A DNA stretch of 64,000 nucleotides. It comes from Candidatus Eremiobacteraceae bacterium (GTDB lineage Bacteria; Vulcanimicrobiota; Vulcanimicrobiia; Eremiobacterales; Eremiobacteraceae). Made by a program: the position numbers and the translations under genes. Positions 4,801 to 41,059 of the stretch are shown here, one piece after another (the first letter of the stretch is position 1; each line of letters opens with the position of its first letter). The DNA lies in assembly GCA_035710745.1 (NCBI GenBank), contig DASTCX010000006.1, forward strand, positions 62,001 through 126,000. Direction: 5' to 3'. Under the pieces are notes generated by a model. That model did not search any database, had not been told where the DNA came from, and saw only the letters and a list, made by a program, of their open reading frames with translations.

Positions 4801-5852
4801 ATCTGGATGACGAGGTCGACCGAGCCGATGTCGATGCCGAGCTCGAGCGAAGCGGTCGCGACGACGGCACGCAGCTCGCCCCGCTTCAGGCGCTGCTCGG
4901 TATCGAGCCGGAGATGCCGAGCGAGGCTGCCGTGATGCGGCATGACCGCGCCTTCGCCGAGCCGCTGCGTGAGATGATGCGAGACGCGCTCGGCGAGTCG
5001 CCGCGTGCTGACGAATACGAGCGTCGTCCGGTGCTCTTTGACGTGCGCGGCAAGGCGGTCGTAGATATCGGACCACGCTTCGTTGCTCGCGATCGGTCCG
5101 AGCTCGTCTTGCGGCACCTCGACTGCGAGGTCCATCTCGCGGCGGTGACCGATGTTGACGATGGCGGCCTCGGAGCTCAAGAAGCGCGCGACCTCGTCCA
5201 CGGGCTTGACCGTTGCCGACAGGCCGATACGCTGCGGGCGCTTTCCGGTCGTCGCTTCCACGAGCCGGTCGAGCCGTGCGAGCGATAGCGCGAGGTGGGG
5301 CCCGCGCTTGTTCGCGATGAGCGCATGTATCTCGTCGACGATGACGGTCGAAACCGTGCGGAAGATCTCGCGCGATCGCGCCGCCGTCAAGAGGATGAAG
5401 AGCGACTCGGGCGTCGTGACGAGTATGTGAGGCGGGGTGCCGACCATGCGCGCGCGGTCCTTCACCGGCGTATCGCCGGTCCGCAGCGCGACCGTGATAG
5501 GCGCAAGCGGCACGCCGCGCGCGCTCGCGAGCGATCGTATCTCGGCGAGCGGCTGCTGAAGGTTCGCGTGGACGTCGTTGACGAGTGCCTTGAGCGGCGA
5601 CACGTAGAGCACGTGCGTCTGATCGGTCAGACCGTTGCGCGCCTCACGGAGCAGCCGGTCGATCGCGACCATGAAGGCGGCGAGCGTCTTGCCGGAACCC
5701 GTCGGCGCGGAGATGAGGATGTCGCGTCCGGCGTTGATGTGCGGCCAGCCGCCGACCTGCGGCGCCGTCGGCGCGCCGAACCGTCCGTTGAACCATTCTT
5801 CGATGAGCGGATCGAACGAGACTTCGGACCGGGTGGCGGGTTCGAGGAGCAT
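1872..5852 (-). CDS. lhr: Lhr-family ATP-dependent helicase
   Basis: This 1326-residue superfamily 2 DNA/RNA helicase belongs to the Lhr (large helicase-related) group. Motif I is SAPTGSGKTLAAF near residue 50, motif II is VDEIHAL near 173, motif III is GLSATV, and RIGRSGH is motif VI. The start fits the family, which begins just before the FG.PT.PQ..GWP.I Q-motif-like segment. After the RecA domains come the winged-helix and Lhr core regions and a long C-terminal domain, so this is the long bacterial form rather than Lhr-core (about 850 residues). The family unwinds 3'-to-5' and is linked to DNA repair. It stands alone: a terminator at 5946-5972 separates it from the gene upstream. Very long open frames on the opposite strand are shadows caused by GC content. 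Confidence 0.95.
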   Translation of the reverse strand: MLLEPATRSEVSFDPLIEEWFNGRFGAPTAPQVGGWPHINAGRDILISAPTGSGKTLAAFMVAIDRLLREARNGLTDQTHVLYVSPLKALVNDVHANLQQPLAEIRSLASARGVPLAPITVALRTGDTPVKDRARMVGTPPHILVTTPESLFILLTAARSREIFRTVSTVIVDEIHALIANKRGPHLALSLARLDRLVEATTGKRPQRIGLSATVKPVDEVARFLSSEAAIVNIGHRREMDLAVEVPQDELGPIASNEAWSDIYDRLAAHVKEHRTTLVFVSTRRLAERVSHHLTQRLGEGAVMPHHGSLARHLRLDTEQRLKRGELRAVVATASLELGIDIGSVDLVIQIGSARSIAVALQRIGRSGHWVGARPKGILIASTRDELLESAAVVKAIRTGAMDTLEPSRNALDILAQQLVAECAAQDWDEDALFQLVRSTSAYETLRRKDFDDVVGVLADGISTSRGRASALLHRDRVNGRVRGRRGARLAAITSGGAIADTTTYSVVADPDETQIGTVDEDFAIESMAGDIFLLGMQSWRIRRVEQGRVRVFDAHGAPPSIPFWNGEAPARTLELSQEVGRLRERIAQIIDDEGAAPAAEYLQRECGLDRLGAEQAVAYIDDGRAILGAVPTCARVIAERYFDEAGGMQLVVHAPFGARINRAWGLALRKRFCRTFNLELQAAATDNGIVISLSEQHAFPLATIFGFLKAGTVEDVLTQAMLPSPMFAARWRWNGQRFLALQRFLGGRRVPANIQRMRADDLLAAVFPDRAACPENLGGEEVRIPDHPLVNETVDDCLHEAMDLDGLKTVLLGIADGSIATIAVETAEPSKFSHEILNANPFAFLDDAPLEERRARAVQLRSTTRIDVSDGVGVLDAAAIAAVADQVWPTVRDADELHDALLTLVVLPPQPQWRDWFAQLEAAGRASEATVDDRWFWIATEKRAVAEGARAGDADAVDQVVRGWMESTGPTTAAALADRLALSAHAIEDSFARLEMHGQVFRGSFTPGLETKDEWCNRRVLARIHRAMLATLRREIEPVSVAVHERFIDVWQHLAPGTQLHGVAGTLQVIKQLQGLEFPAVAWETEVLPRRVARYRREYLDKLCMSGEVAWGRLSPHPAFEADAGPRRRRVRPTRVAPVAIFAREDAGWLFGAPHRDGAALSGSARDVRAAIERRGASFFIDIVRATGRLRSEVEDGLWELVAAGIVTADGFDNLRALVDPRRRLATSRRERGRPRNAPGRWALLEQESASRDVTAFARQLLARWGVVFRDIVLRESLAPPWRDLLVELRRMELQGVIRGGRFVSSYVGEQFCLPEALEALRSLR

Positions 5853-5945
5853 CCCAAGTATTTCGATACCGAGCGACGCGTCCCCGCGACGGGCGATGAT
5901 CGTTCTCGAAAAAGAAGCGGCCGATGCGAGCCGCGCGACGACGAA

Positions 5946-5972
5946 AAACGGAGTGGTGTTGCCACTCCGTTT
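5946..5972 (-). terminator. intrinsic terminator between DUF1761 gene and lhr
   Basis: A perfect 11-bp stem (AAACGGAGTGG with CCACTCCGTTT) has a 5-base loop. Read on the minus strand it is followed by a run of five T, so it ends leftward transcription coming from 6083-6490 before lhr. Confidence 0.8.
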
Positions 5973-6082
5973 CCCGCCTTGAGGAGGTCTTTATAGTATA
6001 TCTATCGGTTACATCTTACCCGAACAACACGGTAGTTTTGATGAGAATTCGGCATGATTTGCCGCACGGTTTCACCGCTTTT

Positions 6083-6490
6083 TCATGCGGTTTTCTTCGT
6101 CCACCCGCCGACGATCGCGCCGATGATCGCAAAACCGACGACCACGTAGCCCGAGTTGATGAGCCAAAGCATGAGCGGGGTGTGCGCGTAGAGCGCCGTG
6201 TTCAAGGTCTGCGTCGCGTAGAGCGCGATGCCCATGAAGAGCGCGAAACTGACGCCCTGCGAAACGCTCAGATCCTCCGGCCGGCGTGACAGCGCGATCG
6301 CCGTCGCGTACGACAAGACGAGGCCGAGCACGAACGACTCGATGTAGAGCGCAGGACTGGCAGGCGCCATCGCGCCGCCCATGAGCGACGTCCACAATGA
6401 AGTGAAGAGCAATCCGTACCATAGGTAACCGAACAGGAAATAGACGATCGCCGCTACCCAAACAGCGAAATGGTTGACGCGGTCAGGCAT
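6083..6490 (-). CDS. DUF1761 family small membrane protein
   Basis: This is a 135-residue protein with four predicted transmembrane segments (around residues 8-28, 50-70, 82-100 and 110-130). I set the start at MPDRVNHFAVWVAA because GGGGAGGT precedes that ATG by 3 bases. An upstream in-frame ATG would add 26 charged residues and has no ribosome-binding site. The WVAAIVYFLFGYLWYG opening, the middle region and the length match DUF1761, a family of unknown function. It is monocistronic, ending at the terminator at 5946-5972. No catalytic residues are apparent. Confidence 0.8.
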   Translation of the reverse strand: MPDRVNHFAVWVAAIVYFLFGYLWYGLLFTSLWTSLMGGAMAPASPALYIESFVLGLVLSYATAIALSRRPEDLSVSQGVSFALFMGIALYATQTLNTALYAHTPLMLWLINSGYVVVGFAIIGAIVGGWTKKTA

Positions 6491-6643
6491 ATGACCTCCC
6501 CACACAAATGGAAATTCGCGCGAGCGATTAGCCGAAGACCGGCTTAGCCACGAGCGCTGTACGCGCACGATGCGCGCTCGACCTTTCGGCGTCGCGAAGA
6601 CGTCACGGTGAAAATCCGCTGACCGGAAAGCGCCGAGCAGTGT

Positions 6644-7324
6644 TTAGCGCAGCTTTTTCTCGGCGTAGGCCGCTATGGCCGCGTGTCCAGCGTCATCGGG
6701 ATGCAGCGAGTCGCTCGACAGCTGCCCGGCGACGTTTTGACTGTCGGTGAAGGAGAAGAGGTCCACGAAATCCGCCTGCGACTGCCTGGCCGCGTCCGCC
6801 GCGGCGGCGTTGTCTGCGGACGCCATATCGTGGAACTGGCCGACGCCGGGCACGAGCGGCGTCCGCGCGACGTCGGGCACGCCGAAGACGATGATGTGCG
6901 CTTGCGGCCAGCTCGACCGGATCCGGGCGACGGCCGAATGCTCGGTCGTCGAAAACGCGTCGGTCGACGTGCCATGGAAGACGTCGTTGCCGCCGACGCA
7001 CAGCCAGACGTCGGTCGCGCCTATGCCACGCGCCTCGGCGTCGGGCACTTGCGTGTCGAGCACGTCCGCGACGGTCGAACCGCTGATCGCGAGGTCGTCG
7101 AATTCGCTGGACGCGTCGCCGTTCGAGAGCTGAGCGAACATGAGCGCGGCAAATCCGTGATCGGGGGTCGACGCGCCGACGCCCGCCGCCAAGCTGTCGC
7201 CGAAGACGATGACGGTCCGATGCGGCGCGGAGTTGTGGACGACCGCCCAGCGATCACCGCCGCAGCCGCCGAGGATCGCGGCAGCGATCGCCACCATAGA
7301 TGCGAAGCTCGCGCAGTGCCTCAT
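6644..7324 (-). CDS. SGNH/GDSL-type esterase lipoprotein
   Basis: This 226-residue exported lipoprotein has the signal MRHCASFASMVAIAAAILGG followed by a lipobox Cys (LGGC). Block I is FGDSLAAGVGAS with the nucleophile Ser at about 43, block III is GGNDVF, and the catalytic Asp/His are in DSLHPDDAGH. This fits the TesA/TAP-like esterase or lysophospholipase group of the SGNH superfamily. GAGGTGG stands 7 bases before the start. It probably acts on lipids or acyl esters at the cell envelope; the substrate cannot be told from sequence. It is divergent from the secreted protein gene at 7526. Confidence 0.88.
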   Translation of the reverse strand: MRHCASFASMVAIAAAILGGCGGDRWAVVHNSAPHRTVIVFGDSLAAGVGASTPDHGFAALMFAQLSNGDASSEFDDLAISGSTVADVLDTQVPDAEARGIGATDVWLCVGGNDVFHGTSTDAFSTTEHSAVARIRSSWPQAHIIVFGVPDVARTPLVPGVGQFHDMASADNAAAADAARQSQADFVDLFSFTDSQNVAGQLSSDSLHPDDAGHAAIAAYAEKKLR

Positions 7325-7525
7325 CGGTTGGCCACCTCAGGCGCCAATCGGCTAGACGAGTCGCGGCCCGGATTCGCGTCGGATTCCTCGTCTGCGGCGA
7401 TGTACGGTCGGCCCTCATGCTTGACCTCTCGCAGCGCCGTGGGCTCTATGCTCGGGGGCAGGGTGCAGCATCGGGGCGGGCCGAATGGCGCGTATAACGT
7501 CGCTTCTTACGTGGGGGAGGCTTCA

Positions 7526-25088: not shown

Positions 25089-25114
25089 ATGGCAACTATT
25101 TCCATAGTTGCCAT
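25089..25114. promoter_or_regulatory. perfect inverted repeat over the 5' end of the DUF5916 gene
   Basis: Eleven-base arms ATGGCAACTAT and ATAGTTGCCAT flank TTCC. The core CAACTA-N6-TAGTTG is the same as at 1679-1696 on the paralogue. It covers the predicted start codon, so it could act as an operator on DNA or as a hairpin on the mRNA. Confidence 0.6.
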
Positions 25115-27371
25115 GAGAACAAACCCACTATATCGCTATGCGTACGCTATCGGCGTCGTCGCGTCGGTCATCGCCGCCTGCGCGCTTCAAGCGAGTGCAT
25201 CCGTCGACCGTTCGCACCTCTATCCCGCCGCGCTCGTGTCGGCGCCGCCGGCGTTCGACCCGTCGCTGACCGATCCGGCGTGGTCGTCGGCCGTCACCGC
25301 CAACGGCTTCGAGGACATCACGACGCGCCGCCCCGCGCCGCACGACACGACCGCCTACATATTGTACGATCAGACGAACGTCTACGTCGGCTTCAAGGTC
25401 GAGCAAAGCGGCGTGCCGATCCATCAGGAGCAGTCGACGAACGACGTCGGCTTCGGACAGGACGACGCGGTCGGCGTTTGCATCGATACGAGCGGCGCCG
25501 GCACGCAAGTGTACTGCTTCGAGACGACGCCGCGCGGCGTGCGCTATCAACAGGCGTCGGAATCCGCGCGTTACGCGCCGCCGTGGCGCGCGACCGCTAA
25601 GGTCGAAGGCACGAGCTGGACGGCCATGATGGTCATCCCGATGAAAGACCTGCGCGCTCCCGGCGGCAAGAACCGCACGTGGCTGTTCAATTTCATCCGC
25701 ATCTGCGCCGCGACCGGCGAGCACTATAGTTGGGCGTACGACGGCCTCATGCAGGATGCACAACCGCCGAACTGGCCGATCTTCACCGATGCCCGCTGGT
25801 GGCCGTCGCTCACCGGTCTCGACATAGCGGCGACCGCCGGCCGGCCGCAACCGCGAGCGGAGATATACGGGCTCGAGAGCGCCGGGCGCGATCGGAACCA
25901 GTTCGTCCAGCCCAACAATAGCGTCGCGCAGCAGAACGCGCGCAACGAGGGCATCGACATCACGTATCCGTTCACGAGCACGATCGCCGCCGTCGGAACG
26001 CTCAACCCCGACTTCTCGAACGTCGAGGTCGATCAGCAGACGATCGTGCCGCAAGAGTTCCGGCGCAACCTCTTCGAGTATCGACCGTTCTTCGCGCAGG
26101 GCGCGCAATATTTCACGCCCGACCAGCTCGTGCCGGCCGGCGGCTTCGACTCCGCGCCGGATGCGGTGTTCTACAGTCCGAGCATCGGCACGTTCGACCG
26201 CGGTGAGAAAGTCGAGGGGACGTTCGGCGCGCAAGCGTTCGGCTTGCTCGAAGTCCGAGGAGTAGAGCCGGACGGTTCGTCGATCGATGACACCGCCTTC
26301 GGCTTCGACCACATCCTGCCGAACCGGACGTTCCTGCTCTGGGCGAACGGCGTCCTCGCGCACCACGGCTCATGCCCGACCTTTGACCTTACGCGCTGCG
26401 GCAACGACTCGACAGTTGATACCGGTATCGCGGGCCGCAACTTGAGCAGTGGACTTGTGTGGGGCTACAATCAGGCCGTCGAAGATCGCCTTCTCACCTT
26501 CGATCCGACCTCGCAATTCTCGTATCTGCGCAACGAATTTCTCGACGTGCACAAGCCGAACTACGAAGTCTTCCAGGGCTATCAGGACATCGGCAGCGGT
26601 TACGGTCCGATGGACGGCTTCACGACCATCGACGATTCCCACGGACCGGTCTACATGTTCAACTTCACCGGCACGACGCCGGGGCTGAAATCGTGGACCG
26701 GGTTTTTCACCGGCGACCGCTTCGAGACGCACGGCGGCACTGTCCACCAGGCGGATTTCTTCGGCAACCAAGACATCGTGACGAATAAGCTCATCCACGC
26801 GAACGTCGGCGTCAACGTGAGCGAGCTCGACGACCCGTTCCTCACGGGAGGTGTCACGCTGCCGTTCAACATCGCCTCTGTCTCGCTCGGCTATCGCGAC
26901 GGCACGCCGACGCCGTTTGATACGTTCTACGGCGCCGGCAACTTCGGCGGCTTCGTGCCAAACTGCGTGTTGACGCCGACGACGCCGCCATCGAAATGTT
27001 TCAAGCCGTTTTATCTGCAGCAGTTCCAGATCTCGTCGACCCATCCCATCGGGAACAAGTTCAGCCTCCAGTGGGCGTACGACGGCACGCACGAGCGCTC
27101 GGATGCCATAGGCGTCGACGGTCAGCTGCTGCGCAGCGTCGGCATCGGCGATTCGCTCGGACCGGACACGGAAGTGACGCTCGCATACCGGGCGATCAGC
27201 GGGCGCGGCGGCTTTGCGTCCCCGGGCGACAACCTCGCTGCGGCATTTCACACGAAGTTCAAGAACGGCAGCGAGCTGTTCGTCAACTTCGGCACGCCCG
27301 CTGCGCCGGTGACGCTCGACCGCCTCATCATCAAGTACCTGCTTCGGATCGGCGGCGGCGCCGGGACCTGA
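25089..27371 (+). CDS. DUF5916/CBM9-type outer-membrane protein
   Basis: This 760-residue protein has an export signal (about residues 12-38), then a family 9 carbohydrate-binding module (about 45-235; DPSLTDPAWSSAV, YILYDQTNVYVGFKV). DUF5916 follows, recognised by LNPDFSNVEVDQQTIVPQEF and FEYRPFFAQGAQYF and continuing as a predicted beta-barrel to the end. Such proteins are found in glycan-using diderms and are thought to sit in the outer membrane. Two starts are possible: 25089, and 25113 just after the inverted repeat. A weak GAGAGCGAG favours 25089. It is a full-length paralogue of the partial gene at 1-1637. A possible loop holds two cysteines (NCVLTPTTPPSKCF). Confidence 0.9.
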   Translation: MATISIVAMRTNPLYRYAYAIGVVASVIAACALQASASVDRSHLYPAALVSAPPAFDPSLTDPAWSSAVTANGFEDITTRRPAPHDTTAYILYDQTNVYVGFKVEQSGVPIHQEQSTNDVGFGQDDAVGVCIDTSGAGTQVYCFETTPRGVRYQQASESARYAPPWRATAKVEGTSWTAMMVIPMKDLRAPGGKNRTWLFNFIRICAATGEHYSWAYDGLMQDAQPPNWPIFTDARWWPSLTGLDIAATAGRPQPRAEIYGLESAGRDRNQFVQPNNSVAQQNARNEGIDITYPFTSTIAAVGTLNPDFSNVEVDQQTIVPQEFRRNLFEYRPFFAQGAQYFTPDQLVPAGGFDSAPDAVFYSPSIGTFDRGEKVEGTFGAQAFGLLEVRGVEPDGSSIDDTAFGFDHILPNRTFLLWANGVLAHHGSCPTFDLTRCGNDSTVDTGIAGRNLSSGLVWGYNQAVEDRLLTFDPTSQFSYLRNEFLDVHKPNYEVFQGYQDIGSGYGPMDGFTTIDDSHGPVYMFNFTGTTPGLKSWTGFFTGDRFETHGGTVHQADFFGNQDIVTNKLIHANVGVNVSELDDPFLTGGVTLPFNIASVSLGYRDGTPTPFDTFYGAGNFGGFVPNCVLTPTTPPSKCFKPFYLQQFQISSTHPIGNKFSLQWAYDGTHERSDAIGVDGQLLRSVGIGDSLGPDTEVTLAYRAISGRGGFASPGDNLAAAFHTKFKNGSELFVNFGTPAAPVTLDRLIIKYLLRIGGGAGT

Positions 27372-31149: not shown

Positions 31150-31280
31150 CGGTCGAGCTTCAGCTCGACCGGAGACGGCCTTCCAGCCGAGTGTATGGAG
31201 CGGTCGACCTTTACGGTCGACCGCAGATGACCTTGCAGTGGTAAGTCCGCGGCGGTCGAGCTGAAGCTCGACCGCTACGG
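31145..31280. repeat. three dispersed-palindrome copies, types A and C
   Basis: Copies lie at 31145-31172 (type A, cag variant), 31198-31223 (type C, GGTCGACC...GGTCGACC) and 31247-31280 (type A preceded by CCGCGG). They take up most of the first half of the 305-base gap between the epimerase and the BlaI-like gene. The rest (31281-31388) shows nothing else. The first copy supplies the epimerase stop codon. Confidence 0.88.
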
Positions 31281-31388: not shown

Positions 31389-31440
31389 TTGACGACTGCA
31401 TCCGGAAGTGGTACGCTCTGTTCAACCTAATAATTTAGGT
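31389..31440 (+). promoter_or_regulatory. promoter with operator-like palindrome for the BlaI-like operon
   Basis: TTGACG (31389-31394) and TACGCT (31412-31417) are spaced by 17 bases. Directly downstream, over the expected transcription start, lies ACCTAA-TAAT-TTAGGT (31425-31440), a perfect inverted repeat. This is the layout of an autorepressed BlaI/MecI promoter, although the half-site differs from the classical one. Confidence 0.65.
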
Positions 31441-31454
31441 GAAAGGACGGACGA

Positions 31455-31838
31455 GTGGCTCGCAAGGCGTCAGTGACGCTCACCGAGGTAGAGCAGCGCT
31501 TGATGGAAGTGTTGTGGGCGAAGGGTCGTGCCAGCGTCGCGGAAGTTCTCGTCGGCCTGTCGCAACGGCCGAAGCCCGCATTCAACACCGTCCAGACGAT
31601 GCTGCGCATACTCGAGCAGAAGGGCTACATCCGCCATGACGAAGTCGGGCGCGGTTTCGTCTACTATCCGGTGGTCGACAAGGCGTCTGCCTCGAAGGCC
31701 GCCGTCAAACAGCTCCTAACACGGTTCTTCAACGATTCCGCCGGCCAACTCGCGGTCAACCTCCTCAGCGAGGCAGATCTGTCGAATGAGGATATCTCAA
31801 AGGTCGAGCGGATGATCGCGGAGGCGAAGCGCCGATGA
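31455..31838 (+). CDS. BlaI/MecI/CopY-family repressor
   Basis: This 127-residue winged-helix repressor starts at GTG after AAAGGACG. The family pattern is clear: LTEVEQRLMEVLWAKGRASV, then FNTVQTMLRILEQKGYIRHD (recognition helix and wing) and GRGFVYYPVV, followed by a dimerisation helix rich in Ala/Leu. In known systems the dimer binds a palindromic operator and is inactivated when the membrane metalloprotease partner responds to a signal. Here the protease gene overlaps its stop by 4 bases (ATGA). A palindrome at the promoter is a likely binding site. No beta-lactamase is nearby, so the output is probably something else. Confidence 0.93.
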   Translation: MARKASVTLTEVEQRLMEVLWAKGRASVAEVLVGLSQRPKPAFNTVQTMLRILEQKGYIRHDEVGRGFVYYPVVDKASASKAAVKQLLTRFFNDSAGQLAVNLLSEADLSNEDISKVERMIAEAKRR

Positions 31839-34141
31839 TCACGCTACCACACGCCGCGTGGGCTATCGTCAATTCCATCTGGCAAGGCGCCGTCATCGCG
31901 GCCATCGCCTGGACCGCGCTTCGGCTCGCACGGCGTGCGAGCGCGGCCGTGCGCTACTATGTCTGGGCAGCGGTGCTCGTCGCCGCGCTCGTCCTGCCGA
32001 TCATCAACCTCTTCGCGCCGGAGCGGATCATCACGATCGCGCCCGAGGTCGCAAAGCAAGCACAAGATGTGCCGACCCAGCCGAGTGCCGTCCACGCGAG
32101 TGTGTCCGTTGCGCCTGCACCTCGGCAAACGGTGACTCACGCCGATCTCGCGACAACGAACGCGATCGCCGTACATCCCAAACCGTCGTACGTCATCGCA
32201 CATCCGACGCAGACGCTCACGAAAGTCCGGCAGACCTCCGCTACGCCACTGGCTGCGATCGCATCAGTCCGCGCAGATCTGAGCCGCGCGATTTCCGACG
32301 TCGACCTTGCCGCGATCGCCGCCGGCCAATGGCTGCAGGCGCGGATCGTTTTCGCATTCGGATTGTGGCTCGCGATCGGGGCACTGCAGTTCGCCCGTCT
32401 CGGTTGGGGCCTCTACCGGCTTTCCACGATCAAACGCGGACTGGTCCGCCTGGACGATCCGGCGGTCGATGCGATGCGCCGATCCGTGTCGCGGCCAGTC
32501 GCGGTCGCGAAATCGGACGAAGTCGGGTCGCCGTGCGTCATCGGCTACGCGCATCCCGTCATCGCGCTGCCGTCGTCGCTCGTCCGAACCCTCGACGAAG
32601 CAGACCTCCATAGAGTGCTGGCTCACGAGCTGGGCCACGTGCGTCGCTTCGACGATTGGGCGAACCTCGTCCAGCAATGCATCCGCGCCGCGCTGTTCTT
32701 CAATCCGATAGTGCACGTCGCGTGCCGCGCGCTCGACGTGAACCGCGAGATCGCGTGCGACGACCTCGTCGCCGCAGGCCACGCGGACCGCATCGAGTAC
32801 GCGAAGTGCCTCACCGAGATCGCGCGCCGCGGCGCGTACGTCGAGCATCTCGTGCCGGCAGCCGGTTTCTTCCCGGATCGCGGCCAGATCGTCGTACGCA
32901 TCGAACAGCTCCTCGACCGCGATCACGCGGGTTCCGCGCGCGTCGGCGTCGTGCCGGCCGCAAGCGCGATCGCGGTCATCATCGCGGTCGCCGCCCTCGC
33001 GGCGCATCAGCTGCCCGCGCTCGCGATATCCACACCGCCGGCTCCCAAGCCGCCCGTGTCTGCGCCGGCATCCGCCTGGGCAGAGCTCGACAAGGCGCGC
33101 AGCGCCGAGGCCGCGGCGCTCTACCAGTCGGCGAACAAGGAGCCGTCGTTTGCCGCCGAGGATGTCGCGGCGCTCGCGCAAGCTCAGGCGGCGCTCGCCG
33201 TGGCGCACCTCAACTTGACGCGCGTCAGCGCACACGCGACGAGTGCGGTTCTCGCCGAAGAACCCAAGATAGCGATGGCGATGGCGCGATCGAGAATCGC
33301 GATCGCGCCGCATATCGCGGCGGCGATGGCCCGATCGCTCTCGATGGTCCGACCGCAGATCGCGCTCGCCCCGCGCATCGCGATGATGGCAGCACAGTCG
33401 CAGTTGGGGCTCGCCCCGAAGGCCCCGCAGTCATCGTCGGAAGAGGACTTCCTCGACGCCCTTGCCGCGGCCGGCTACTCGCATCTATCGGTCGACGACC
33501 TGATCGCGATCCGCAACTCCGGCGTCACAAGCTCGTATCTCCGGGCGCTCAAGCAATACGGCGTCTTGCCGATGCCGGCGCACACGCTCATCGCGCTCGC
33601 CGACTCCGGCGTGAGCGCCGCTACGATCGCTTCGATGGCCGCCGCGGGCTATGCCGGGCTCAAAGCCGAGGACCTCATCTCGCTTCAGAACTCGGGGGCG
33701 ACTCTCGCACTCGTACAATCGGCGAAGGCGTCGCTTCGGCCGGCCCCGTCGGTGCAGGACCTCGTCGCTCTTGCGAACGCGGGCGTCACGCCCGAATACA
33801 TCGACGCGCTCGCCAAAAGCGGCTACGCGAAGCTCAGCGCTGCATCGATCGTCAAGCTGCAGAACGCGGGCGTCTCGTCGTCATACCTCATCGATCTGGC
33901 AAAGCTCGGCCACGTGGGGATGAGCGTCGATTCGCTCATCGCGCTTGCGAACGCCGGCGTATCGCCGGACTACATCCACGCCCTCGCCGGCCTCGGTTAC
34001 TCGGGAGTATCGACCGACGATCTCATCCGGATGATGAACGCGGGCGTGACCCCCGACCTCATCAAGCGGCTGCGCGCACACGGCTTCAGCGAAACGCTTT
34101 CGGTCGACGAGCTCATCAAGCTCGCGAACAACGGCTTCTAA
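31835..34141 (+). CDS. BlaR1/MecR1-like M56 metalloprotease with C-terminal repeat array
   Basis: This 768-residue protein begins with transmembrane segments (about residues 4-22 and 34-52). A further helix near 170-190 precedes an M56 zinc protease domain with HELGH at residues 264-268 and REIACDDLV further on. A transmembrane segment near 368-388 follows. The C-terminal part is not the penicillin-binding domain of BlaR1. It is an Ala/Met-rich linker and, from about residue 535, seven or more repeats of about 29 residues with the pattern LS.DDLI.L.NAGV...Y..ALA..GY. The repeat array should be extracytoplasmic and is the likely sensing part. The gene is coupled to the BlaI-like repressor upstream and lies 1 base before the repeat protein downstream. 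Confidence 0.9.
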   Translation: MITLPHAAWAIVNSIWQGAVIAAIAWTALRLARRASAAVRYYVWAAVLVAALVLPIINLFAPERIITIAPEVAKQAQDVPTQPSAVHASVSVAPAPRQTVTHADLATTNAIAVHPKPSYVIAHPTQTLTKVRQTSATPLAAIASVRADLSRAISDVDLAAIAAGQWLQARIVFAFGLWLAIGALQFARLGWGLYRLSTIKRGLVRLDDPAVDAMRRSVSRPVAVAKSDEVGSPCVIGYAHPVIALPSSLVRTLDEADLHRVLAHELGHVRRFDDWANLVQQCIRAALFFNPIVHVACRALDVNREIACDDLVAAGHADRIEYAKCLTEIARRGAYVEHLVPAAGFFPDRGQIVVRIEQLLDRDHAGSARVGVVPAASAIAVIIAVAALAAHQLPALAISTPPAPKPPVSAPASAWAELDKARSAEAAALYQSANKEPSFAAEDVAALAQAQAALAVAHLNLTRVSAHATSAVLAEEPKIAMAMARSRIAIAPHIAAAMARSLSMVRPQIALAPRIAMMAAQSQLGLAPKAPQSSSEEDFLDALAAAGYSHLSVDDLIAIRNSGVTSSYLRALKQYGVLPMPAHTLIALADSGVSAATIASMAAAGYAGLKAEDLISLQNSGATLALVQSAKASLRPAPSVQDLVALANAGVTPEYIDALAKSGYAKLSAASIVKLQNAGVSSSYLIDLAKLGHVGMSVDSLIALANAGVSPDYIHALAGLGYSGVSTDDLIRMMNAGVTPDLIKRLRAHGFSETLSVDELIKLANNGF

Positions 34142-34142
34142 G

Positions 34143-35201
34143 ATGCCAAAGAACGTGTGGCGCACGGCCACGATAGCCGCCTGCGGAGGTCTCGCATGCC
34201 TCGCGTTGGCCCCTTTCGCAGCTCTTCGGACGGCGCGCGCCGACGACGCCTCGAGTACGTACGCTGGCACGTGGCGCCTCAACTACCTCCAACAGGATCA
34301 AGTCGATTTCGAGCTCGCGTATCGCAGCGGCGGGTCGACGTGGGATGAAGGGCACACGGTCGCATTTTCGCAGTCCGGCATAACGGGCATGACGCTCGAC
34401 CAAGTCGAGCACTCGCGCGGCGACGCCCACTTCACGGTCACCCGCGATGCCGGCACGTTCGATTGCCGTGGCTACTTCGAAAGCGGCACCGGGTCCGGCA
34501 TCTTCAACTTCGTGCCGAACGAGTCGTTCGCCGACGGTCTCGCTGGGCGGGGCATCGGCCGGCCTTACATCGGCGAACAGTTCCGGCTTGCGTTCTCGAA
34601 CGTATCGCTCGCGTACGTCGATCAGCTAAGATCCGCGGGCGTCGCCGGCCTGACCACCGACGGCCTCGTCCGCCTCGCCGACCACGACGTCACGGCCCCG
34701 TTCGTCGCAGCGCTGCATTCGGGCGGCATCCACACGCCCTCGGTCGATGATCTCGTCCGGCTGCGCGATCACGACGTCGATCCGCGCCTCGTCTCGGGCT
34801 TCGTCGCAGACGGCTACCATCCGAGCGCGGACGATCTCGTGCAACTGCGCGATCACGACGTGAGCATCGACTTCGTCAATGCAGTGCGCCAGTCGGGGTA
34901 CTCGCCCTCGGTCGGCGATCTCGTGCAGCTGCGCGACCACGATGTCGATGCCGCGTTCGCCGCCGGTATGCACAAACTCGGCTACCGTCTCGTCGCGGGC
35001 GATCTCGTCCGCTTGCGCGACCACGACGTCAATCTCGATTACGTCACGGGGCTGAAAGAGCTCGGTTACGTCCCCACCACCGACGATCTCGTGCGGCTCC
35101 GCGACCATGGCGTCGATCTCGAATTCGTCTCGCGCCTCCAGGCGCACGGTTACCACCCGTCGGTCGACGACCTCATCCGTCTCCACGACAGCGGCATCTG
35201 A
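34143..35201 (+). CDS. exported repeat protein related to the M56 sensor repeats
   Basis: This 352-residue protein has a signal peptide (ATIAACGGLACLALAPFAAL, cleaved after ARA). A beta-rich domain of about 100 residues (TYAGTWRLNYLQQDQVDFEL, with FDCRGYFESG) follows. From about residue 155 come seven 28-residue repeats of the form PSVDDLV.LRDHDV...FV..L...GY. These are related to those of the M56 protease, but with RDHDV in place of the NAGV-type segment. It starts 1 base after the protease stop, so blaI-like repressor, protease and this protein form one operon. A secreted ligand, decoy or modulator that pairs with the protease repeats is a reasonable guess; nothing in the sequence proves binding. 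Confidence 0.85.
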   Translation: MPKNVWRTATIAACGGLACLALAPFAALRTARADDASSTYAGTWRLNYLQQDQVDFELAYRSGGSTWDEGHTVAFSQSGITGMTLDQVEHSRGDAHFTVTRDAGTFDCRGYFESGTGSGIFNFVPNESFADGLAGRGIGRPYIGEQFRLAFSNVSLAYVDQLRSAGVAGLTTDGLVRLADHDVTAPFVAALHSGGIHTPSVDDLVRLRDHDVDPRLVSGFVADGYHPSADDLVQLRDHDVSIDFVNAVRQSGYSPSVGDLVQLRDHDVDAAFAAGMHKLGYRLVAGDLVRLRDHDVNLDYVTGLKELGYVPTTDDLVRLRDHGVDLEFVSRLQAHGYHPSVDDLIRLHDSGI

Positions 35202-35247: not shown

Positions 35248-38200
35248 ATGATGCGCTTCATACTCTCGACGGCTGCGTCCGCGCTGGCCGTCTTTTTATT
35301 GACTTCGACAGCCGTGGCTGCGGAAGCGACGCCGGCACCGCACGCGAAAGCGACCGCGCCGCCACCTTTCGGGTCGCTGCAGTGGCGTTCGATCGGTCCC
35401 GCGATCTCCGGCGGACGCGCGACATCGGTCGCCGGCACCGACGACGATCCGTTCCTCTATTTCGTCGGCACGGCCGGCGGCGGCGTCTACCGGACGAAAG
35501 ACGGCGGCGCTCACTGGGATGACGTGTGGGGCGACGAGCCCGTCGGGCCGATCGGCGCCGTTTCGATAGCGCCGCACCATCGCGATGTCATCTGGGTGGG
35601 CACCGGAGAGTCGAACCCGCGCAACGACGTGTCGTACGGCGACGGCGTCTACGTGTCGACCGACGGCGGCGACTCGTGGATGCACCGCGGCCTCGAGCAC
35701 AGCGCGGCGATCGCCCGCATCCTCGTCGATCCGCACGATCCGAACGTCGCGCTCGTCGCCGCTCAGGGCGACCCGTTCGCCAACGATTCCGAGCGAGGCG
35801 TCTACCGGACGACCGACGGCGGCAAGACCTGGACGAAGACGCTCTACGTCGGGCCGCGCAGCGGCGCATCGGAGCTCGCATGGAACGCGGATCGGCCGGC
35901 CGTCGTCTTCGCCGGCATCTGGGAGTACCGGCGAACGGGTTGGAGCGGTGACAGCGGCGGAGCGCAGGACGGACTCTACCGCTCGACCGACGGCGGCAAG
36001 ACGTGGGCGAAGCTGAGCGGGCACGGTCTGCCGAGCGGCTCGCTCGGCAAGGTCGGCGTCGCGGTCGCGGCGAGCGACCCGAATCGTGTCTATGCGATAA
36101 TCGAGAGCCGCGAGGGCCTGCTCTGGCGCTCGGACGACGGCGGCGACACGTGGCACTACGTCACCTCGAACACGCTGCTCGATCAGCGCCCGTTCTACTA
36201 TTCGCATCTGTACGTCGACCCGACCGATCCGAACCACTTGCTCGCCGTCTCGGTGAATCTCGCGGAAAGCCGCGACGGCGGGAAGACGTGGAAGAACAAC
36301 GCGCACGCGATCCACGGCGACCATCACGACATCTGGTGGGCCGCCGACGGCCGCCGCGTCATCAACGCGAACGACGGCGGCGCGGCGATCTCGATCGACG
36401 GCGGTTCGTCGTGGGAGTGGCGCGACAACTATGCGTCCGCGCAGACATATCGCGTCGGTTACGACAACCGCATCCCGTACGACGTCTGCGTCGGCCTGCA
36501 AGACAACGGCGGGTGGTGCGGGATGTCGACCTCGTCGACAGGCGCGATCGTCGACCGCGATTGGACAAACGTCGGCGGCGGCGACGCGACGTGGGTCGTG
36601 CCCGATCCTGCGGACGACCGGTACGTCTGGGTGGCGTCCGGCGGCGGCAACAACGGCGGCGAGCTAGGCATCTACGACCGCACCACAGCACAGTATCGCG
36701 ACGTATCGCCGTACGATCGCGATACGAACGCGATCGGCACCGCCGGGCTTCCGTATCGCTTCAACTGGGAGTCACCGGTCGCGTTCTCGCCGTCCGATCC
36801 GCACGTCGCGTATTTCGGCGGCAACGTCGTGTGGCGCTCCACCGATCGCGGTGCGCACTGGACGCCGATCTCCCCCGATCTGACGCTCGATGACAAATCG
36901 CACGAGCAAGCGACGGGCGGCATCACGCACGACGTGACGGGTGCCGAGGTCTTCGACACGATACTCTATATCGCGCCGTCGAAGGTCGATCCACGCGTCA
37001 TGTGGGTCGGTACCGACGACGGGCTCGTCCAGTTGACGCGCGACACCGGCAAGCATTGGTCGAACGTCACGATGCGCGGCGTCGGTCCCTACGGACGTGT
37101 CGCGACGATCGAGCCGTCATCGAAGAGCGCGGCGGCCGCGTACGCGATCGTCGATCGTCACTACGCCGGCGACCGCGCTCCCTACATCTTCGCGACGCAA
37201 GACTACGGCAAGACGTGGCGATCGGTCGTCGATGGGTTGCCGCCGGATCAGTTCGTCCGGACCGTGCGCGAGGATCCGCGCAACCCTGACGTTCTCTACG
37301 CGGGGCTCGAGCAGAGCGTCTGGGTCTCGCTCGACCGCGGACGAAAGTGGCAGCCGTTCCAGCTCGGCCTGCCCGCCACGTCCGTGCGCGACTTGCGGAT
37401 CCAGCCGCGCGAGAACGATCTCATCGCGGCGACGCACGGCGCGGCAGTGTGGATACTCGATGATCTGACGCCGGTCGAACAGCTCGCGCGCGCGAAAAGC
37501 GCGGGGACGTACCTCTTTCCGCTGCGTAACGTCTACTGGATACTGACGGAAGCTCAGGGAAATCCGAACGGCGGTCCCAGCTCGTTCTCGGGCGATGCCG
37601 GCCCGGCCGGCGGCTTGCCGATCTCGTACTACATCCACTCAGGGACGAAAGGGCCCGCTTCGATCGACGTCATCGACGCGGCGGGTCGAGTCGTCCGCCG
37701 TTTCTCCGGAACGCATCAAGAGGGCGGCAAGAAAGTGCCGGACGTTCCGACCGACACCGGCATCAACCGGATCGTGTGGGATCTGACGTCGGATCCTCCG
37801 ACGTCGTGGTTCGCGGCGCCGCGCTGGAACCGAGATGCGATCGGCTCGCCGCCCGTCGCGCCGGGTACGTACGACGTCGTCCTGCATGTCGGCGGTCACG
37901 CGTTCTCGCGGCCGGTCACCGTGCTCGAGGATCCGCGCGCGCCGTGGAGCGCGGCGGACGCGAAGGCTTCGCGCGAGACGCTCGTCGACATCGTCAGCCG
38001 GATGTCGGCGGTCGACGACATGCTCAACGCGCTCGACCGGCTGGACGGCGATCTCGCTGACCGCACGAAGCGGGCGGCATCGAACGCGCAGCTTCTTGCG
38101 ATGCTGGCGACGACGCACCGGGATGCGTCCGGCGTACGCGCAGAGCTCACGTCGAGCCCGACGAACGATCAGGACGACGACTTTCTGCCGGACATGCTGC

Positions 38201-38394
38201 GCGAACGCCTTCAGGCGCTGTATTTCCAGCTGTCGGGGGAGCAGTACGCGCCGACAACCTCAGCGCTGCGGGAGCTCGACGCTCTCGGAGGCATGCAGGC
38301 GGATGCGTCATCGAGGTACCGCAAGCTCGTAGACGACGATGTCGCGGCGCTCAACTCGGCTCTGAAGACGGCGGGGTATCCGCCCGTTCGCTGA
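35248..38394 (+). CDS. secreted BNR/sortilin-like multi-propeller protein
   Basis: This protein of 1048 residues starts at MMRFILSTAASALAVFLLTS, a Sec signal; the open frame further upstream runs inside the previous gene. It contains at least ten Asp-box (BNR) repeats, for example TKDGGAHW, STDGGDSW, TTDGGKTW, SDDGGDTW and SRDGGKTW, forming one or two propellers up to about residue 780. A beta-sandwich segment (DTGINRIVWDLTS) and a helical tail follow. Proteins of this VPS10/sortilin-like group are often annotated as glycosyl hydrolases, but the Asp-box is structural, so no activity can be claimed. It lies 46 bases after the repeat protein and could belong to the same transcription unit. Confidence 0.88.
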   Translation: MMRFILSTAASALAVFLLTSTAVAAEATPAPHAKATAPPPFGSLQWRSIGPAISGGRATSVAGTDDDPFLYFVGTAGGGVYRTKDGGAHWDDVWGDEPVGPIGAVSIAPHHRDVIWVGTGESNPRNDVSYGDGVYVSTDGGDSWMHRGLEHSAAIARILVDPHDPNVALVAAQGDPFANDSERGVYRTTDGGKTWTKTLYVGPRSGASELAWNADRPAVVFAGIWEYRRTGWSGDSGGAQDGLYRSTDGGKTWAKLSGHGLPSGSLGKVGVAVAASDPNRVYAIIESREGLLWRSDDGGDTWHYVTSNTLLDQRPFYYSHLYVDPTDPNHLLAVSVNLAESRDGGKTWKNNAHAIHGDHHDIWWAADGRRVINANDGGAAISIDGGSSWEWRDNYASAQTYRVGYDNRIPYDVCVGLQDNGGWCGMSTSSTGAIVDRDWTNVGGGDATWVVPDPADDRYVWVASGGGNNGGELGIYDRTTAQYRDVSPYDRDTNAIGTAGLPYRFNWESPVAFSPSDPHVAYFGGNVVWRSTDRGAHWTPISPDLTLDDKSHEQATGGITHDVTGAEVFDTILYIAPSKVDPRVMWVGTDDGLVQLTRDTGKHWSNVTMRGVGPYGRVATIEPSSKSAAAAYAIVDRHYAGDRAPYIFATQDYGKTWRSVVDGLPPDQFVRTVREDPRNPDVLYAGLEQSVWVSLDRGRKWQPFQLGLPATSVRDLRIQPRENDLIAATHGAAVWILDDLTPVEQLARAKSAGTYLFPLRNVYWILTEAQGNPNGGPSSFSGDAGPAGGLPISYYIHSGTKGPASIDVIDAAGRVVRRFSGTHQEGGKKVPDVPTDTGINRIVWDLTSDPPTSWFAAPRWNRDAIGSPPVAPGTYDVVLHVGGHAFSRPVTVLEDPRAPWSAADAKASRETLVDIVSRMSAVDDMLNALDRLDGDLADRTKRAASNAQLLAMLATTHRDASGVRAELTSSPTNDQDDDFLPDMLRERLQALYFQLSGEQYAPTTSALRELDALGGMQADASSRYRKLVDDDVAALNSALKTAGYPPVR

Positions 38395-40159: not shown

Positions 40160-41059
40160 ATGTATTGTACCACGAACTCGACCCGCGGCGAACTGCGTCA
40201 AAAGATGATCGACCTGCACCGCGCCGGCATTACCGTCACGACGATCAGCGAGCGCCTGCGGGTCGCTCGCACGACGGTCTACCGCTGGCTCCAGCGGGAG
40301 AGCCGCGAAAGCCGATCGCCCATCCCGCGTTATCAGCCGCGCAAGACGCCGGCGATCGTCGAGGAGTTGGTCCGCCAGGTGCGCGAGGAGACCGGCGGCG
40401 GCCCGTGGCTCATTGGCATCCGGCTCACGATGCCGACATCGACCGTCTACAAGATCCTGTGCCGGCTTGGGATCAACCGGCTCGCCAAGCCGATGCCGCC
40501 CGCGGCACCCCACCGCTACGAGTACGCCCGTCCAGGCGAGCTCGTCCACGTCGACGTCAAGAAACTCGGCACAAAAGGCCTCGTTCCGCTGCCGCGCAGT
40601 ATCCGGTCGCAGATCGGCCACCAGTGCTTGCACGTCATGCTCGACGATTGCTCGCGTTGGGTCTTCTGCGCGATCTATCCCGACGAGAGCGCCGCGTCAT
40701 GCGCTGAGTTCCTCGAGCGTGGCATCGCGCAGTTCGCGTCGCTGGGCGCGACCGTCGAGCGCGTCCTCACCGACAACGGATCGGGATACACCAGCGAGCG
40801 TTGGCGCAACACGTGCGAGTTGCTCGGCGTGCGCCACGCGCGGACCCGACCGCACCATCCCCAAACCAACGGGAAGGTCGAGCGCTGGCACCGGACACTC
40901 ATGCACGAGGCGATCAAGGATGCCCGGGTGCTGCCCAGCTTGCAGGCGCGCGAGACGATCATCTACAACTTCGCGAACTTCTACAACACCCAGCGACCGC
41001 ACAAAGCGCTCAACGGGAAGGCACCCCTGCACAAGCTCGCGCAGGCTCGCAAAGTGTAG
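40160..41059 (+). CDS. IS481-family transposase
   Basis: This 299-residue transposase has an N-terminal helix-turn-helix (HRAGITVTTISERLRVARTT, then VYRWLQRE) and an rve/DDE catalytic domain. The acidic triad is D in LVHVDVKKLG, D in VLTDNGSGYTS and E in TNGKVERWHRTL. It ends with YNTQRPHKALNGKAP, typical of the IS481/IS3-like group. The frame is intact and both element ends are recognisable, so it may be active. AGGAGG lies 6 bases before the ATG within a hairpin. No other copy is present in this window. Confidence 0.95.
   Translation: MYCTTNSTRGELRQKMIDLHRAGITVTTISERLRVARTTVYRWLQRESRESRSPIPRYQPRKTPAIVEELVRQVREETGGGPWLIGIRLTMPTSTVYKILCRLGINRLAKPMPPAAPHRYEYARPGELVHVDVKKLGTKGLVPLPRSIRSQIGHQCLHVMLDDCSRWVFCAIYPDESAASCAEFLERGIAQFASLGATVERVLTDNGSGYTSERWRNTCELLGVRHARTRPHHPQTNGKVERWHRTLMHEAIKDARVLPSLQARETIIYNFANFYNTQRPHKALNGKAPLHKLAQARKV

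What the first reader, a model, noticed from the sequence alone, without database searches (positions are those of the whole stretch)
31455..35201. BlaI/M56 signalling operon with matching repeat arrays in sensor and secreted partner
Seen: a repressor, an M56 protease (HELGH) whose C-terminus is seven or more 29-residue repeats in place of a penicillin-binding domain, and 1 base later an exported protein with seven related 28-residue repeats. No beta-lactamase is nearby. Known: in BlaR1 the C-terminal domain senses the drug. Inference: this operon may sense a different envelope signal, possibly through contact between the two repeat arrays. This is the best candidate in the window for an undescribed system.
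Basis: partly seen in the sequence, partly recalled or inferred. Interest (0 to 1): 0.75.

Follow-up and report, generated by a model that had tools for sequence, protein, structure and literature searches.

The report
Split sensor for BlaI/M56 protease signalling
Three neighbouring genes encode a repressor, a membrane protease whose outer part is a chain of small helical repeats, and an exported protein with matching repeats; the same trio recurs across several bacterial phyla and looks like an undescribed way for bacteria to sense something outside the cell other than penicillin.

Summary
In detail: BlaI-type repressor (31455-31838), M56 protease with eight C-terminal repeats (31835-34141) and, one base later, an exported protein, here "SEC", with seven related repeats (34143-35201). 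It is not local. 26 adjacent trios, plus one single-ORF fusion, were found in Eremiobacterota, and 16 trios in other phyla; the M56 genes examined without repeats lack SEC. Two further M56-SEC fusions occur outside the phylum. A perfect dyad, ACCTAA-N4-TTAGGT, lies at the promoter (31425-31440); it occurs once in this 2.97-Mb genome. Over 17 genomes there are 24 sites against 0 for the reversed control, 16 before this blaI and others before genes for exported hydrolases and an outer-membrane-type DUF5916 protein. AlphaFold gives SEC as a six-strand domain plus helical solenoid (pLDDT 91) without a significant PDB match. Best reading: a BlaR1-like regulated-proteolysis switch with a split, non-penicillin sensor and autoregulation. 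Covariation of the arrays beyond shared ancestry was not significant (p=0.11). Ligand, cleavage and contact are inferred or unknown. New variant of a known kind.

The parts
31389..31417 (+). promoter-like element TTGACG-N17-TACGCT
   Evidence: read from sequence, same in the sister genome L003; below the threshold of the consensus scan, so inference
31425..31440 (.). BlaI operator ACCTAATAATTTAGGT (perfect 6-4-6 dyad)
   Evidence: conserved before blaI in sister loci; only exact site in the genome, reversed control 0; chance 0.15 per window at up to 2 mismatches
31455..31838 (+). BlaI/Penicillinase_R-type repressor, 127 aa
   Evidence: Pfam PF03965 1.9e-29
31835..34141 (+). M56 (BlaR1-type) membrane zinc protease, 768 aa, overlaps blaI by 4 nt
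   Evidence: Pfam PF05569 2.5e-29; four predicted TM helices at aa 7-25, 43-61, 169-187, 370-388
32624..32638 (+). HELGH zinc-protease motif (aa 264-268), predicted cytoplasmic
33449..34138 (+). M56 extracytoplasmic repeat array, eight ~29-aa units (aa 539-768)
   Evidence: repeat HMM; homologous array folds as helical solenoid in the L055 model
34143..35201 (+). SEC: exported partner protein, 352 aa, with N-terminal signal-peptide-like stretch
   Evidence: AlphaFold2 pLDDT 91
34260..34613 (+). SEC six-strand beta domain (aa 40-157), RDAG and GxGxG motifs
34614..35198 (+). SEC repeat array, seven ~28-aa two-helix units (aa 158-352)
35248..38394 (+). gene 46 bp downstream: exported sortilin/BNR beta-propeller protein, possibly co-transcribed
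   Evidence: Pfam PF15902 3.1e-32; gap and same order in sister genome L003
38471..40012 (+). exported S10-type serine carboxypeptidase, possibly same transcript
   Evidence: Pfam PF00450 5.4e-11; same order in L003

Best explanation
This is a BlaR1-type regulated-proteolysis switch with a split, non-penicillin sensor. BlaI sits on the ACCTAA-N4-TTAGGT dyad and represses its own operon. The M56 protease has its catalytic domain in the cytoplasm and a helical-solenoid repeat array outside. The exported SEC protein (beta domain plus the same kind of array) works with, or as part of, that outer sensor. When the signal arrives, M56 is switched on, BlaI is cleaved, and the operon is made, together with, in many genomes, an outer-membrane-type DUF5916 protein or exported hydrolases. 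Shown: gene order, conservation, homologous arrays, fusions, conserved dyad, predicted topology and fold. Inferred: BlaI binding and cleavage, SEC as co-sensor, autoinduction. Unknown: the signal.
For: Trio recurs in 26 Eremiobacterota loci and 16 in other phyla. Three natural single-ORF M56-SEC fusions in separate lineages, with SEC after the last TM helix. M56-domain and SEC-domain distances correlate at 0.85 over 32 loci, i.e. co-inheritance. M56 topology matches BlaR1 and the modelled homologue matches BlaR1 cryo-EM structures (8exr, TMt 0.61, 4.1 A over 192 columns). Operator exact: 1 site in this genome; 24 sites versus 0 in the reversed control over 17 genomes, 16 at this blaI. Eight further sites, among them before DUF5916 genes (two genomes) and exported S15 peptidase and BAAT-type hydrolase genes. 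DUF5916-like gene 1-78 bp after SEC or the fusion in nine Eremiobacterota loci and one of another phylum.
Against: No ligand, no cleavage and no contact is shown. Three repeat-M56 loci (L075, L080, L081) have no adjacent SEC, and SEC occurs without an adjacent M56 in other phyla (L124, L191-L198, L203-L206, L209, L210), so neither strictly needs the other. Array covariation beyond ancestry p=0.11. In several genomes the only clear operator is the operon's own, so the output is uncertain.
Confidence: 0.5

Rival explanations
1. SEC is the effector, not a sensor part. Sensor array and secreted array are homologous because both bind the same external ligand, as the BlaR1 sensor domain is related to class D beta-lactamases; the two proteins never touch.
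For: BlaR1 sensor domain is related to class D beta-lactamases (PMC9834060). In loci such as L055, L058, L064 the operon ends with SEC and the next gene is on the other strand, leaving SEC as the only evident product. SEC also exists without M56.
Against: Fusions put SEC on the protease with no separate SEC beside them, which would leave no free effector there. No enzymatic family or known fold was found for SEC.
Confidence: 0.27
2. SEC is a negative-feedback partner: an exported copy of the sensor module, made on induction, which binds the M56 ectodomain or titrates the signal and switches the system off.
For: SEC is in the operon that BlaI itself appears to repress and has a homologous array.
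Against: Fusions would make an always-bound inhibitor; no direct test.
Confidence: 0.15
3. One reading: the two repeat arrays bind each other and the signal breaks or makes that contact.
For: Homologous arrays, predicted same compartment, adjacent genes.
Against: The three fusions retain only one array; partial correlation of array divergence after controlling for ancestry 0.11, p=0.11; the model of the read-through pair has pTM 0.46 and no usable interface information.
Confidence: 0.07
4. Ordinary beta-lactam sensing BlaR1/BlaI system with a degenerate sensor.
For: BlaI and M56 belong to those families.
Against: No penicillin-binding domain, no beta-lactamase among 17 neighbouring proteins scanned, operator targets elsewhere are not beta-lactamases.
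Confidence: 0.01

Closest known systems
BlaR1/MecR1-BlaI/MecI (staphylococci, Bacillus licheniformis)
   Same: BlaI-family repressor with dyad operator; M56 protease with four TM helices, HExxH facing the cytoplasm, extracytoplasmic C-terminal sensor
   Different: Sensor is a helical repeat array instead of a class D beta-lactamase-like penicillin-binding domain; a separate exported protein with the same kind of array is encoded in the operon; no beta-lactamase seen nearby
PetR-PetP of cyanobacteria (BlaI-family/BlaR1-family pair, copper-dependent; PMC7896320)
   Same: A BlaI/BlaR1-type pair used for something other than beta-lactams
   Different: Described without an exported repeat partner in what I read; the full PetRP paper was not held, so its sensor architecture was not compared
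Mycobacterium tuberculosis BlaR1 homologue without an equivalent sensor domain (PMC9834060)
   Same: M56 protease lacking the penicillin-binding sensor; sensing possibly supplied in trans
   Different: There the suggested partner is the kinase PknB, not an operon-encoded repeat protein
Designed helical-repeat protein O43_129 (8v2d)
   Same: Best structural match to SEC, short two-helix repeats (TMq 0.31, E 3.9e-3)
   Different: Artificial protein; not evidence of relatedness. No natural solved homologue found

Membership tests
BlaI/Penicillinase_R repressors | Penicillinase_R winged-helix domain | tested here: met
   PF03965 1.9e-29 over residues 9-122
BlaI/Penicillinase_R repressors | dyad operator at its own promoter | tested here: met
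   ACCTAA-N4-TTAGGT conserved before blaI; binding itself not tested
M56 (BlaR1-type) proteases | Peptidase_M56 domain with HExxH | tested here: met
   PF05569 2.5e-29; HELGH 264
M56 (BlaR1-type) proteases | four TM helices, protease between TM3 and TM4 in the cytoplasm, C-terminus outside | tested here: met
   hydropathy and positive-inside pattern; modelled homologue matches 8exr; prediction only
BlaR1/MecR1 beta-lactam sensors | C-terminal penicillin-binding (class D beta-lactamase-like) domain | tested here: not met
   C-terminus is repeats with no Pfam transpeptidase/beta-lactamase match; NCBIfam blaR1_generic 76 bits against cut-off 400, covering residues 217-396 only
BlaR1/MecR1 beta-lactam sensors | controls a beta-lactamase or PBP2a gene | tested here: not met
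   none among 17 neighbours; one exact operator in the genome, at this operon
BlaR1/MecR1 beta-lactam sensors | protease activity leads to repressor cleavage on induction | not testable with these tools
   needs experiment
PetR-PetP copper switch | copper-dependent control of petE/petJ | not tested
   no copper assay possible; petE/petJ were not searched

The most novel reading that the evidence does not exclude
A cross-phylum, previously undescribed class of split receptor for regulated proteolysis, in which an exported repeat protein is the ligand-binding subunit of an M56 protease in trans, and in some lineages has been fused to it in cis.
Probability: 0.42. Interest if true: 0.78.

Novelty: new variant of a known kind. 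Interest (0 to 1): 0.64.

Why it matters
BlaI/M56 pairs are common in the genomes surveyed here, yet beyond beta-lactams and copper I know of no established signal for them. This trio supplies a conserved sensor module, its operator and candidate target genes, so the question of the signal becomes testable by reporter, pull-down and deletion, including in cultivable relatives (the large-genome lineage is probably Myxococcota). It would add a second sensor design to the BlaR1 paradigm, one delivered as a separate exported protein.

Tried and rejected
Plasmid collection: SEC finds nothing, M56 only distant protease-domain matches. A repeat consensus written from memory finds nothing in plasmids. 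Array covariation looked strong (own-locus permutation p=5e-5) but was not significant once M56- and SEC-domain distances were controlled (p=0.11). Operator-like sites at the start of DUF5916 genes in G093, G099, G105 (one mismatch) lie inside the predicted reading frame (encoding PIVLG) and were not counted as operators. The site before thrS in G102 may be chance. The consensus promoter scan found none, so the promoter is read by eye. Literature: no paper found on this architecture; the library is partial.

Full report
What is there. The coordinates and gene calls of the finding hold. BlaI (31455-31838) is a Penicillinase_R protein (1.9e-29), the second gene a Peptidase_M56 protein (2.5e-29), and the third has no Pfam family and no PDB sequence relative. 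blaI and m56 overlap by four bases; m56 and the third gene (called SEC here) are one base apart. The M56 protein has four predicted TM helices at 7-25, 43-61, 169-187 and 370-388, HELGH at 264 between the third and fourth, and a positive-inside pattern that puts the protease in the cytoplasm and residues 389-768 outside. A repeat HMM counts eight units in M56 (539-768) and seven in SEC (158-352); the two arrays are homologous (E=1.8e-26, 32% identity).

Structure. AlphaFold2 of SEC with 49 family members gives pLDDT 91: a disordered signal-peptide region, a domain of six strands (41-125) and then short helices in pairs, a solenoid. Foldseek finds no PDB entry with E<=0.001; the best is a designed helical-repeat protein. 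For the pair I modelled the homologue L055, read through its in-frame stop (an artificial tether): the M56 part matches S. aureus BlaR1 (8exr, 4.1 A over 192 columns), the M56 array is again a two-helix solenoid with most blocks above pLDDT 90, a linker of about 150 residues before it is of low confidence, and overall pTM is 0.46. No interface can be judged from this.

Distribution. SEC as query finds relatives in 30 of 149 genomes of the phylum (the related record L003 is titled Candidatus Eremiobacteria). I fetched these loci and scored all ORFs with HMMs. 26 loci have blaI, repeat-M56 and SEC in a row on one strand (in L060 SEC is cut by the contig end; in L061 the M56 gene is in pieces), one (L074) has M56 and SEC in one ORF, three are cut by contig ends (L068, L079, L082), and three (L075, L080, L081) have repeat-M56 without adjacent SEC. 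Eight M56 loci without repeats, chosen for contrast (L085-L092), have no SEC. A profile search reached other phyla: 63 of 195 genomes in the phylum of G176, 9 of 150 in that of G209, 21 of 149 in that of G231. Among fetched loci there, 16 show the full trio (L123, L200-L202, L207, L211, L213-L215, L217-L221, L225, L226) and two more show M56-SEC fusions (L199, L208). Others carry SEC with no M56 nearby, one beside an apparent ECF sigma and anti-sigma pair (L196, by eye).

Fusions. L074 (658 aa), L199 (803 aa) and L208 (745 aa) each have the M56 domain with HExxH, the last TM helix, then the SEC beta domain and a single array. Fusion of partners in separate lineages is strong evidence that they act together. 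It also shows that SEC can stand in for the M56 array, so two arrays in contact are not a general requirement.

Operator and targets. Upstream of blaI in the window lies ACCTAATAATTTAGGT (31425-31440), just after a TTGACG-N17-TACGCT promoter-like element. The same 6-4-6 dyad precedes blaI in many sister loci; in another group it is CTACTAA-N4-TTAGTAG. The exact pattern occurs once in the 2.97-Mb genome. Over 17 genomes it occurs 24 times, and the reversed pattern never; 16 sites are at this blaI. The eight others lie before a DUF5916 gene (G017 beside the trio; G079 unlinked), an exported BAAT-type hydrolase (G018), an exported S15 peptidase and an exported HEHFH protein (G105), two Trans_reg_C regulators (G017, G026) and near thrS in G102. 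Independently, a DUF5916-like gene lies 1-78 bp after SEC or the fusion in nine Eremiobacterota loci and one from the G176 phylum. In the window itself the following gene, 46 bp on, is an exported sortilin/BNR propeller, then an S10 carboxypeptidase, an order shared with L003. Thus the likely output is exported or outer-membrane proteins, varying by lineage; in some genomes the operon's own site is the only clear one.

Mechanism. From BlaR1 (PMC9834060): a signal on the outer domain activates the inner protease and BlaI is inactivated. Transferred here: the signal reaches the array and SEC, M56 is activated, BlaI leaves the dyad, and the operon is induced. I think SEC is most likely part of the sensor (0.5), because of the fusions and tight co-inheritance (M56-domain and SEC-domain distances correlate at 0.85). 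Rivals are that SEC is an effector sharing the ligand of the sensor (0.27), or a feedback brake (0.15). Apparent array covariation is not significant after controlling for ancestry.

Comparison. It belongs to the BlaI and M56 families by the features tested, but not to the BlaR1 beta-lactam sensors, since the penicillin-binding domain is absent. A BlaI/BlaR1-type pair with a different signal is known (PetR-PetP, copper). I found no paper on a repeat-array M56 with an exported repeat partner, in a partial library.

Noticed in passing
25089-27371: DUF5916/CBM9-like outer-membrane-type protein about 4 kb upstream of the trio, without the dyad operator; the genome has five matches to DUF5916. The family is the recurrent fourth gene of the trio elsewhere.
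   Followed up: partly
31200-31280, and L003 about 110 bases upstream of blaI: Palindromic GCGGTCGAGC...GCTCGACCGC-type intergenic repeats next to the operon in both sister genomes.
   Followed up: no
L061 (G017:C12), 5251-7343: M56 of this trio is spread over three overlapping ORFs, a frameshift or assembly error, while SEC is intact.
   Followed up: no
L196:5957-8716: SEC without M56, downstream of what look like ECF sigma and anti-sigma genes; suggests SEC may partner with other envelope signalling systems.
   Followed up: no
L253:3046-3990: Exported 314-aa protein with HEHFH motif and no Pfam family, preceded by the exact BlaI dyad in G105.
   Followed up: partly
40160-41059: rve-type integrase/transposase gene directly after the S10 carboxypeptidase gene.
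   Followed up: no
L127:5810-6667: Remote SEC-like exported protein (1e-4) in G084 with no M56 beside it.
   Followed up: no
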